Of a DNA stretch of 64,000 nucleotides, positions 30,730-33,354 are shown piece by piece. Positions within the stretch are counted from its first letter, which is position 1. Each line of letters opens with the position of its first letter. The notes beneath the pieces were generated by a model that saw only the letters and a program-made list of their open reading frames with translations, ran no database searches and had not been told where the DNA came from. Source of the stretch: Halobacterium wangiae (lineage in GTDB: Archaea; Halobacteriota; Halobacteria; Halobacteriales; Halobacteriaceae); the NCBI RefSeq assembly GCF_021249345.1, contig NZ_CP089588.1:1612001-1676000 (forward strand), read 5' to 3'. The translations under genes and the position numbers were made by a program.

Positions 30730-30753
30730 TGGCTGGTGGTAGTCCCGGCGCAC

Positions 30754-30760
30754 AGATAAG
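30754..30760 (-). promoter_or_regulatory. TATA box of the PIN-ATPase gene
   Basis: On the minus strand CTTATCTG precedes the ATG at 30729 by about 27 bp, fitting a leaderless transcript. It lies within about 6-12 bp of the inferred end of the tnpB element, so the element is inserted immediately upstream of this core promoter. Confidence 0.55.
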
Positions 30761-30765
30761 GGTGT

Positions 30766-30930
30766 GTGACATCCTCCCCGCCGTGAGCGGCAGGGCTTCC
30801 CGTACCGCGTTGGGATATTTACGGTTTGCAGATGCTCGCTTGTTCAGCGAACGTCCCCTGTCCACTACTCGGGTCGTGTTCTCCACGACGGAACAGGTTG
30901 ACCACAGGGCGTGCCACACGCCCGCTACTC
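30766..30930 (-). ncRNA. Candidate TnpB omega (re)RNA
   Basis: In TnpB systems the guide RNA is made from the 3' end of tnpB and the right end of the element. Here the corresponding strand shows the hairpin CCCTGCCG-CTCA-CGGCGGGG (30776-30795) ending about 7-10 bp before the inferred element boundary. The extent on the tnpB side is unknown; my coordinates are a guess. Downstream bases ACACCCTTATCTGTG would be the guide. Confidence 0.35.
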
Positions 30931-32117
30931 CTATCCACAGAGGGATTCAGAGTTACCTTTTCTGCTTGGTCTAACCGACGGCGAATGTTCTCTGCGCCAT
31001 TCGAGTCGGCGTTCATCACGGCGTCACACCCACGACAGATGTACAACCCACGCTCGACGCGATTCGCCTCGCGTTTCTGCCCGCAACACGAACACGTCTT
31101 CGACGTGTCTCGCTCGCTCACCGTGACCACGGCGATGCCTTCGGCTTTCGCCTTGTACGTGAGCAGGTTCGTGAAGCGGTCGAACGCCCACCCGTGCAGG
31201 CCTTCGTTGCCACGGTCGCCCCAGTTCCGAGCCTCGCCAGTCTCGTCGTCTTCACGGATGCCCTCGAGGTTGCCGACGGCAATCGTTCCGACACCTCGTT
31301 CGACGCACTCTGTGAGGATGTGTCTGGTGACGGCGTGCAGGTAGTGCGACCGGCGCTCCGAACGCTTCCGGCGAAGCCGGAGTGCTTTGTTCGACCGAGG
31401 TGAGTTGCACTTCGCTATCTCCTTGGCGAAGTACCGTTCGTCGGTCTTGAGAGCGTTCCCCGGATACAACTCGTGGTCGTCCGTGGAATACGAGACGGCG
31501 GCAAAGTTCTTGATACCGAGGTCAATACCAGCGGTTTCGTCGCCGGGAGACCGGGCCTCGATTTCGTGTTTACACACGATGTGGAGTTCCCATTCGTCAC
31601 CATTCCAAACGGCTCGAACTTGGGGGATGTTCTCAACGACCACGTCTGGTCGGGTTTCGATGTCGCAGAGGATGAAGTCCGACCAGTGGTCTTTCAGGTT
31701 CCGGCCTTTGGAGAGTCGAATTCGGTTGTTCTTCGCGTCGTGTTTGAAGCCGTCTTCTTTGAACGTGACCGTAGAGCGCGGGTGGTCGTCGCCGTTCTTT
31801 CTGTACTTTGGTGGGTTTGCGCGGTCGTCCCCGTTTCGGCGCTTGGCGTACCAACCACGGAATGCTTCAGCGAGTTCTTCGATGACTCGCTGACTCGACT
31901 GAGAATTGAGGTCGGCGTAGCGTTCGTGGGTCTTCAGGTATGCCTTGAGCGGGCCATCATCGGGGATTGTCCCTGTTTCGTTCCAGATACGGTCGCACGT
32001 CCAGCGAGCGATGTTCCAGAGTTTCGAGGCGGCAAACCCGAGCGAGTCCAAGTCACCCTTGACCAGTTGCTGGTTCTGTATGGAAGCAACATAGGTGCGA
32101 GCGACATGAATCGCCAT
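30819..32117 (-). CDS. tnpB: TnpB RNA-guided nuclease
   Basis: A 432-aa TnpB with an intact RuvC core: GIDLGIKNF (D199), GNLEGI (E285) and NADSNGAEN (D371). A zinc ribbon CSCC (C342, C345) and CRGC (C361, C364) lies between the last two. The N-terminal OB/WED-like region has the usual TYVASIQNQQLVKGDLDSLGFAASKLWN start. All catalytic residues are present, so cleavage activity is plausible. TnpB is usually guided by the omega RNA to targets next to a TAM. The C-terminal 50 residues are variable. AT-rich DNA before the start (TTAAGTAAGATTAATTAC) likely holds its promoter. Confidence 0.93.
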   Translation of the reverse strand: MAIHVARTYVASIQNQQLVKGDLDSLGFAASKLWNIARWTCDRIWNETGTIPDDGPLKAYLKTHERYADLNSQSSQRVIEELAEAFRGWYAKRRNGDDRANPPKYRKNGDDHPRSTVTFKEDGFKHDAKNNRIRLSKGRNLKDHWSDFILCDIETRPDVVVENIPQVRAVWNGDEWELHIVCKHEIEARSPGDETAGIDLGIKNFAAVSYSTDDHELYPGNALKTDERYFAKEIAKCNSPRSNKALRLRRKRSERRSHYLHAVTRHILTECVERGVGTIAVGNLEGIREDDETGEARNWGDRGNEGLHGWAFDRFTNLLTYKAKAEGIAVVTVSERDTSKTCSCCGQKREANRVERGLYICRGCDAVMNADSNGAENIRRRLDQAEKVTLNPSVDRSSGRVARPVVNLFRRGEHDPSSGQGTFAEQASICKP

Positions 32118-32283
32118 ACATAGTCCGTGTAATTAATCTTACTTAATGCTGTGGATTGTGTAGGCAGTGTCGGATTCACTCCCGCCGTGAACGGCAGGAT
32201 TCTCTCCTCGAATCAAGATAGACGGGGGCGGCCCCCCGCCGGACGACGCCGGGGGCTAAGTTCCTCCGTCCCGTCGCTCCGGT

Positions 32284-33354
32284 GTGAACGTCCGCACGCT
32301 GACCGAACGTCTGGTCTCGATTCCGAGCCACGAGGACGAGACGGCCGCCGGCGACGCCGTCGAGTCGTGGCTCCGCGAGCAGACGGACGCCGACGTGACC
32401 CGGGACGGCGCGGGCAACGTCCTGGCGTGGCGCGAACGGGACGCCGACGGCCCGTCGCTCGCGCTCGTCGGCCACCACGACGTCGTGCCGCCGGACGAGA
32501 GCCAGACCACTGACGGTGGCTACGTGTTCGAGGGGCGCGACGGCCGCCTCTACGGCCGCGGCACCGCGGACATGAAGGGCGCCGTCGCCGCGATGCTGCT
32601 CGCGTTCCGGGACGCCGACCCGGAGTGCCCGCTCGCGTTCGCGTCGTTCGTCGGCGAGGAGACCGGCGGCGAGGGCGCGCGGTACGCCATCGACGACGGC
32701 TTCGCGCCCGACCGGGCGCTCGTCGCCGAGGGGTCGACGGGCTACTCCGCGCCGGGCGTCCTCGACGTCGCGGTGGCGCACAAGGGGCGGCGCGCGAGCA
32801 CCGTCACCGCGGAGGGCGCGGCCGCTCACGCCAGCGAACCCGAGGCGGGAGAGAACGCCATCTACCGGGCCTGCGACGCCGTCGACGTGATCCGCGACCT
32901 CGACGCCCCGAGCGCCGAGGTGTTCGGGGAGACGCTGTCGGGGAGCGTCGCCGTCACCGAGATCGAGGGCGGGTCGGCGTGGAACGTGATTCCCGAGGCC
33001 TGCGAGGTGACCGTCGACGAGCGCACTGTCCCCGGCGAGCGCGCGGCACTCGACGAGGTGGAGGGCGTCGAGGGCGTGACCTGGAGCGTCGACCAGGACC
33101 TCCCGCCGATGGCCTGCGACGACGAGGCGTTCGTGGAGCGCGCGCTCGACGCCGTCCGCGAGGTTCAGGACGGTGCCGGCGAGCGCGTGAGCAAGCCCCA
33201 CGCGACGGACGCGGGGTGGCTCGCCGACGCCGGCGTGTCGTGTCTCGTCTGCGGGCCTGCCGAACCCGGGGAGGCCCACACCGCCACGGAGAGCGTCTCT
33301 CTCGACGTGCTCGACCGGTGTCGTCGCGTCTACCGGCGACTCGCGAGCGCGTGA
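32284..33354 (+). CDS. M20-family metallopeptidase/deacylase
   Basis: A 356-aa M20 enzyme with a GTG start. Zinc ligands and catalytic residues appear in SLALVGHHDVVPP (His-x-Asp), LYGRGTADMKGAVAAML (Asp), FVGEETGGEGAR (Glu-Glu), and a C-terminal His in CGPAEPGEAHTATESVS. The dimerisation domain has AHKGRRASTVTAEGAAAHASEP. Such enzymes deacylate amino acids, e.g. in lysine or arginine synthesis (DapE, ArgE, LysK). Substrate is not settled. A GCTAAGTT box sits about 27 bp upstream of the GTG. Confidence 0.88.
   Translation: MNVRTLTERLVSIPSHEDETAAGDAVESWLREQTDADVTRDGAGNVLAWRERDADGPSLALVGHHDVVPPDESQTTDGGYVFEGRDGRLYGRGTADMKGAVAAMLLAFRDADPECPLAFASFVGEETGGEGARYAIDDGFAPDRALVAEGSTGYSAPGVLDVAVAHKGRRASTVTAEGAAAHASEPEAGENAIYRACDAVDVIRDLDAPSAEVFGETLSGSVAVTEIEGGSAWNVIPEACEVTVDERTVPGERAALDEVEGVEGVTWSVDQDLPPMACDDEAFVERALDAVREVQDGAGERVSKPHATDAGWLADAGVSCLVCGPAEPGEAHTATESVSLDVLDRCRRVYRRLASA

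What the first reader, a model, noticed from the sequence alone, without database searches (positions are those of the whole stretch)
30746..32216. Intact TnpB element with matching end hairpins, a TTGAT flank and a rebuildable insertion site
The tnpB-only element ends in same-oriented hairpins (CCTGCCG-TTCA-CGGCGGG and CCCTGCCG-CTCA-CGGCGGGG). Just outside the left one is TTGAT, which is the published TAM of ISDra2 TnpB. Joining TTGAT to the right flank gives TTGAT-ACACCCTTATCTGTG as the empty site. The downstream flank, and so the predicted guide, overlaps the TATA box of the PIN-ATPase gene, so a functional TnpB-omega RNA complex would target the uninserted allele of that promoter.
Basis: partly seen in the sequence, partly recalled or inferred. 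Interest (0 to 1): 0.72.

Follow-up and report, generated by a model that had tools for sequence, protein, structure and literature searches.

The report
Haloarchaeal TnpB element, CTAT insertion site
A well-preserved but otherwise ordinary archaeal "jumping" element with an RNA-guided nuclease gene sits at the edge of the promoter of a DNA-repair-type gene; relatives show it landed after the letters CTAT, not after TTGAT as first proposed.

Summary
The element is real: a tnpB-only IS200/IS605 (IS1341-type) element of a haloarchaeon, minus strand, 30766-32217 (1452 bp). It has two same-oriented subterminal hairpins, an open 432-aa tnpB and a sot0042-like omega RNA region.

The central claim, a TTGAT TAM, is wrong. 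The nearest relative lacks the element and reads CCGTCTAT|ACACCC; flanks joined at CTAT align gap-free over 1600 bp, whereas the TTGAT version leaves 6 extra bases. CTAT precedes 25 of 28 true copies with unrelated flanks; TTGAT occurs in only one, this one, inside the element. A second empty site (phnE, nine homologues) agrees. The ends fit the IS608 guide code: CTAT with AGAA, TCAC with GAAG, with covarying alternatives in sister subfamilies.

"Intact" needs a caveat. TnpB of this clade lacks the canonical RuvC-II Glu in all 108 sequences examined; invariant E335 is the likely substitute. The tnpB leader has lost about 37 bp. A new member of a known kind with a corrected target motif; cleavage and omega RNA production are untested.

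The parts
30766..32217 (-). whole element, 1452 bp; left end at 32217, right end at 30766
   Evidence: flanks joined at these ends align gap-free with the element-free relative G001 over 1600 bp; homologous copies in other genera share the same ends
32218..32221 (-). target site CTAT (left cleavage site CL; predicted TAM), outside the element
   Evidence: directly upstream of 25 of 28 true left ends with unrelated flanks; present in the empty site of G001
32212..32216 (-). TTGAT, element-internal; coincidental variant of the TTTCT found in most copies
32200..32203 (-). left DNA guide GL = AGAA, directly 5' of the left hairpin, predicted to pair with CTAT
   Evidence: IS608 pairing rule (PMC5934647) applied to the sequence; covaries between subfamilies
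32180..32199 (-). left subterminal hairpin
   Evidence: sequence; conserved in copies
30819..32117 (-). tnpB, 432 aa; D199, D371 and two zinc-ribbon CxxC pairs conserved; no canonical RuvC-II Glu (G282); invariant E335
   Evidence: dN/dS 0.09-0.17 against 12 copies
30766..30958 (-). predicted omega RNA scaffold (sot0042-like)
   Evidence: Rfam RF02656 at 30775-30958, 54.8 bits, E 6.6e-13, below the gathering score of 88; fold z = -2.3
30796..30799 (-). right DNA guide GR = GAAG
   Evidence: 4th base covaries with the 4th base of CR in 74 of 78 right ends
30776..30795 (-). right subterminal hairpin
   Evidence: compensatory changes at three stem positions over 43 copies
30766..30769 (-). right cleavage site CR = TCAC, last bases of the element
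30750..30765 (-). predicted omega RNA guide ACACCCTTATCTGTGC, flanking DNA overlapping the promoter core of the PIN-ATPase gene
   Evidence: right boundary; 16-nt guide length by analogy with ISDra2 (PMC8612924)
28867..30729 (-). downstream PIN-domain ATPase gene (NF010335; related to Holliday-junction migration ATPase PINA)
32284..33354 (+). [quoted passage not shown]

Best explanation
This is a tnpB-only IS200/IS605 (IS1341-type) element that inserted, without target duplication, directly 3' of a CTAT tetranucleotide in the short divergent intergenic region between an M20 deacylase gene and a PINA-like PIN-ATPase gene. It most likely moves as single-stranded DNA by a Y1 TnpA acting in trans, with CTAT read by the element's own DNA guide AGAA and the right end TCAC read by GAAG, as in IS608. 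Its TnpB with the 3'-end omega RNA most likely cuts the re-formed empty site CTAT-ACACCCTTATCTGTGC after excision or in element-free alleles, which restores the element by homologous repair. Shown here: boundaries, target site, guide-code consistency, purifying selection on tnpB, promoter overlap. Inferred: trans mobilisation, omega RNA production, cleavage and its biological effect.
For: Empty site in G001: CCGTCTAT|ACACCC, gap-free over 1600 bp at 92% identity. CTAT before 25 of 28 true left ends, against 2 of 29 in control windows. Second empty site in phnE, gap-free to nine homologues, each version with 6 added bases scoring lower. GR/CR covariation G:C 46, A:T 17, T:A 11, 74 of 78 Watson-Crick. 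Left-end pairs CTAT/AGAA, TTAC/AAAG, CTAC/AGAG fit the pairing A+16:T-3, A+17:T-4 of IS608 (PMC5934647). TnpB family matches. Rfam sot0042. dN/dS about 0.1.
Against: No tnpA in the element. The only full-length tnpA found in the genome sits beside another tnpB with a GAAT/TCAA right end, so cross-mobilisation is assumed. The canonical RuvC-II Glu is missing (G282). The sot0042 match is below Rfam's curated score. About 37 bp are missing from the tnpB leader relative to all nine copies compared. Three true left ends lack CTAT (L123, L125, L140).
Confidence: 0.88

Rival explanations
1. One reading: the element uses the ISDra2 TAM TTGAT and its empty site is TTGAT-ACACCC.
For: TTGAT is present at 32212-32216 near the left hairpin and is the ISDra2 TAM (PMC8612924).
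Against: G001 lacks TTGAT at the junction and the joined sequence then needs a 6-nt gap. No other copy has TTGAT. The left guide AGAA fits CTAT under the IS608 pairing rule.
Confidence: 0.03
2. The insertion site in this lineage carried CTTGAT as a polymorphism, later deleted in G001.
For: A 6-bp deletion between AT repeats could turn TATCTTGATAC into TATAC.
Against: The more distant G008 also reads TATACACCC. CTAT followed by CTT is conserved at the left ends of most copies with unrelated flanks, so CTTGAT belongs to the element. A second locus gives the same boundary.
Confidence: 0.03
3. A captured, regulatory TnpB (TldR-like) that uses its guide to repress the PIN-ATPase promoter without cutting.
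For: The guide overlaps the promoter core; the RuvC-II Glu is absent at its usual place.
Against: The guide is only flanking DNA at the insertion site and does not match an unoccupied site in its own genome (no match to CTAT+guide start with up to 1 mismatch). None of the relatives read shows an element end at this site. D199 and D371 are kept and E335 is invariant.
Confidence: 0.04
4. An immobile relic under decay.
For: No tnpA; a leader deletion of about 37 bp; no close second copy in the genome (next is 63% identical).
Against: Open tnpB with dN/dS about 0.1 against other copies (which reflects the whole lineage); ends and hairpins intact. Absent from the nearest relative, so the insertion postdates that split.
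Confidence: 0.15

Closest known systems
IS608 (Helicobacter pylori), IS200/IS605 family
   Same: subterminal hairpins, no target duplication, four-base cleavage sites read by four-base DNA guides 5' of each hairpin
   Different: CL/GL CTAT/AGAA and CR/GR TCAC/GAAG here, against TTAC/AAAG and TCAA/GAAT in IS608; no tnpA here
ISDra2 TnpB (Deinococcus radiodurans)
   Same: TnpB with right-end RNA whose last ~16 nt come from the flank
   Different: TAM TTGAT there, target CTAT here; canonical RuvC-II Glu absent here
Haloarchaeal IS1341-type elements and sotRNAs (Halobacterium sot0042, RF02656; ISNph and ISHwa elements)
   Same: tnpB-only elements with a sense-overlapping right-end RNA, conserved target oligonucleotide outside the element (PMC3119063, PMC12558985)
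   Different: below the Rfam curated score; the group closest to this one has the CTAT target and about 83-90% DNA identity between genera
TnpB clades with RuvC-II rearrangement (RII-r, PMC10278001)
   Same: no Glu at the usual RuvC-II position, NADxN RuvC-III motif; one RII-r5 member is active
   Different: assignment of this clade to RII-r5 is inferred from E335 after the fifth strand, not tested

Membership tests
IS200/IS605 family, tnpB-only (IS1341) group | subterminal hairpins near both ends, same orientation, no terminal inverted repeats | tested here: met
IS200/IS605 family, tnpB-only (IS1341) group | insertion 3' of a fixed short target without target duplication | tested here: met
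   CTAT; empty sites in G001 and phnE homologues
IS200/IS605 family, tnpB-only (IS1341) group | guide/cleavage-site pairing at both ends | tested here: met
   sequence fit and covariation, rule from PMC5934647; pairing itself not assayed
IS200/IS605 family, tnpB-only (IS1341) group | mobilised by a Y1 TnpA in trans | not testable with these tools
   a tnpA exists elsewhere in the genome
RNA-guided endonuclease TnpB | TnpB family profile above cut-off | tested here: met
   NF040570 209 bits, cut-off 100; PF07282 70.5, cut-off 26.3
RNA-guided endonuclease TnpB | canonical RuvC D/E/D triad | tested here: not met
   D199 and D371 kept; position 282 is G or S in all 108 haloarchaeal sequences; E335 invariant and possibly substituting
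RNA-guided endonuclease TnpB | guided double-strand cleavage at TAM + guide | not testable with these tools
   needs an assay
ISDra2-type TAM | TTGAT at the left flank | tested here: not met
   CTAT instead
Rfam sot0042 (RF02656) omega RNA | score at or above the gathering threshold | tested here: not met
   54.8 bits against 88, E 6.6e-13, full model length

The most novel reading that the evidence does not exclude
The haloarchaeal TnpB clade to which this belongs uses an active site in which the RuvC-II glutamate has moved to the end of the next strand (E335), and this subfamily has a CTAT TAM set jointly by the DNA guide and the protein. Element, TAM, guide and an element-free sister genome together would make a clean natural test case in a genetically tractable group.
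Probability: 0.5. Interest if true: 0.4.

Novelty: new member of a known kind. Interest (0 to 1): 0.25.

Why it matters
It shows that a familiar TAM seen by eye can mislead: with an element-free relative and many copies the target is unambiguous. It supplies a haloarchaeal TnpB subfamily with a firmly defined target (CTAT), right end and guide, and a testable non-canonical active site. The biology is otherwise that of known IS200/IS605 elements.

Tried and rejected
TTGAT as TAM: rejected. TldR-like repressor: considered, not favoured. Empty-site search for the L041 copy in its own genus found no homologue of the interrupted gene; joined at the same boundary its flanks read through as an uninterrupted frame resembling an HTH regulator, not tested against Pfam. 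AlphaFold model of TnpB: mean pLDDT 58.6, pTM 0.42, too poor for distances or a fold search; used only for the order of strands. The left end of the tnpA-bearing element elsewhere in the genome could not be identified. The consensus fold of the whole omega RNA over 44 copies was uninformative because the alignment mixes two subfamilies. The RF00062 (HgcC) match at 23.8 bits overlaps the same RNA and is below its gathering score.

Full report
What is there. On the minus strand a 432-codon tnpB runs from 32117 to 30819, matching NF040570 (RNA-guided endonuclease TnpB family, 209 bits, cut-off 100) and the Pfam domains OrfB_IS605 and Cas12f1-like_TNB. The window is GC-rich (about 70%) with a dip over the element, and its relatives are haloarchaea.

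The junction. The PIN-ATPase gene downstream was used to find the same place in relatives. The nearest one, G001 (96% protein identity), has no element and reads CCCCCGTCTAT|ACACCCTTATCCGTG. Flanks of the window joined after CTAT and before ACACCC align with G001 without a gap over 1600 bp at 92%; the version that keeps CTTGAT needs a 6-nt gap. The more distant G008 also reads TATACACCC.

Copies elsewhere. Copies at 83-90% DNA identity occur in other genera. Anchoring on AGGAGAGAATC, with no demand on what lies upstream, gave 29 distinct flanks, one of them a chance match (the first of the two L042 rows, without a hairpin). CTAT lies in the last 17 bases before the anchor in 25, against 2 of 29 in control windows further upstream; TTGAT occurs in one, the window itself. 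Most copies continue CTAT-CTTTCT..., the window CTAT-CTTGAT..., so TTGAT is inside the element. A second empty site supports this: the L045 copy interrupts a phnE-like gene, and its flanks joined at the same boundaries align gap-free to nine uninterrupted homologues, while adding 6 bases lowers every score.

Guide code. In IS608 the cleavage sites are read by four-base DNA guides 5' of each hairpin (PMC5934647; the pairs A+16:T-3 and A+17:T-4 are stated there, the pairing of the fourth bases is my reading). Applied here, CTAT calls for AGxA and the sequence has AGAA; TCAC calls for GAxG and the sequence has GAAG. Over 78 distinct right ends the fourth guide base and the last base of the cleavage site are G:C 46, A:T 17, T:A 11, 74 Watson-Crick. 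Sister subfamilies have TTAC with AAAG and, in a few copies, CTAC with AGAG. These comparisons do not correct for relatedness of the copies.

TnpB and its RNA. dN/dS against 12 copies is 0.09-0.17. In 108 haloarchaeal sequences D199 is invariant, the zinc-ribbon cysteines are nearly so, and D371 is kept in 107, but the usual RuvC-II Glu position is G or S in all; E335, right after the next predicted strand, is invariant. TnpB clades with such RuvC-II rearrangements are known and one member is active (PMC10278001). That E335 substitutes is inference. The right-end region matches Rfam sot0042 over its whole length at 54.8 bits, below the curated 88; its fold is more stable than shuffles, z = -2.3. 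The right hairpin shows compensatory pairs at three stem positions among 43 copies. The tnpB leader lacks about 37 bp present in nine compared copies.

Site. The guide ACACCCTTATCTGTGC begins at the conserved core promoter: CTTAT (CTTAA in one) lies 29-34 bp before the ATG in 19 of 22 relatives, consistent with a TATA box of a leaderless transcript (general knowledge of haloarchaea; not tested here). The insertion left this core untouched. The gene matches NF010335 above cut-off and the Holliday-junction migration ATPase PINA model below cut-off. No second copy of CTAT+guide start exists in the own genome at up to one mismatch; G001 has an exact match to the 15-base pattern and differs from the full guide at one base.

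Mobility. The element has no tnpA. The genome holds one full-length and one partial Y1 match; the full-length one lies beside a tnpB whose right end is of the GAAT/TCAA kind. Mobilisation in trans is assumed. Haloarchaeal tnpB-only elements with target oligonucleotides outside the element were described before (PMC3119063), and their RNAs too (PMC12558985).

Verdict. An ordinary, well-preserved element of a known kind, with the target motif corrected from TTGAT to CTAT, the right end and promoter overlap confirmed, and catalytic competence open.

Noticed in passing
30819-32117: The haloarchaeal TnpB clade lacks the canonical RuvC-II Glu in all 108 sequences compared and has an invariant E335 instead.
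   Followed up: partly
32117-32180: About 37 bp of the tnpB leader present in nine related copies are missing here.
   Followed up: partly
30755-30925: Rfam HgcC (RF00062) matches the omega RNA region weakly, which suggests that HgcC itself may be a TnpB omega RNA.
   Followed up: no
L130: The flanks of this copy carry parts of CPBP-type protease reading frames that do not form one interrupted gene.
   Followed up: no
L045, L046: Identical element and flanks in genomes placed in two different genera, pointing to recent transfer of a larger stretch.
   Followed up: no
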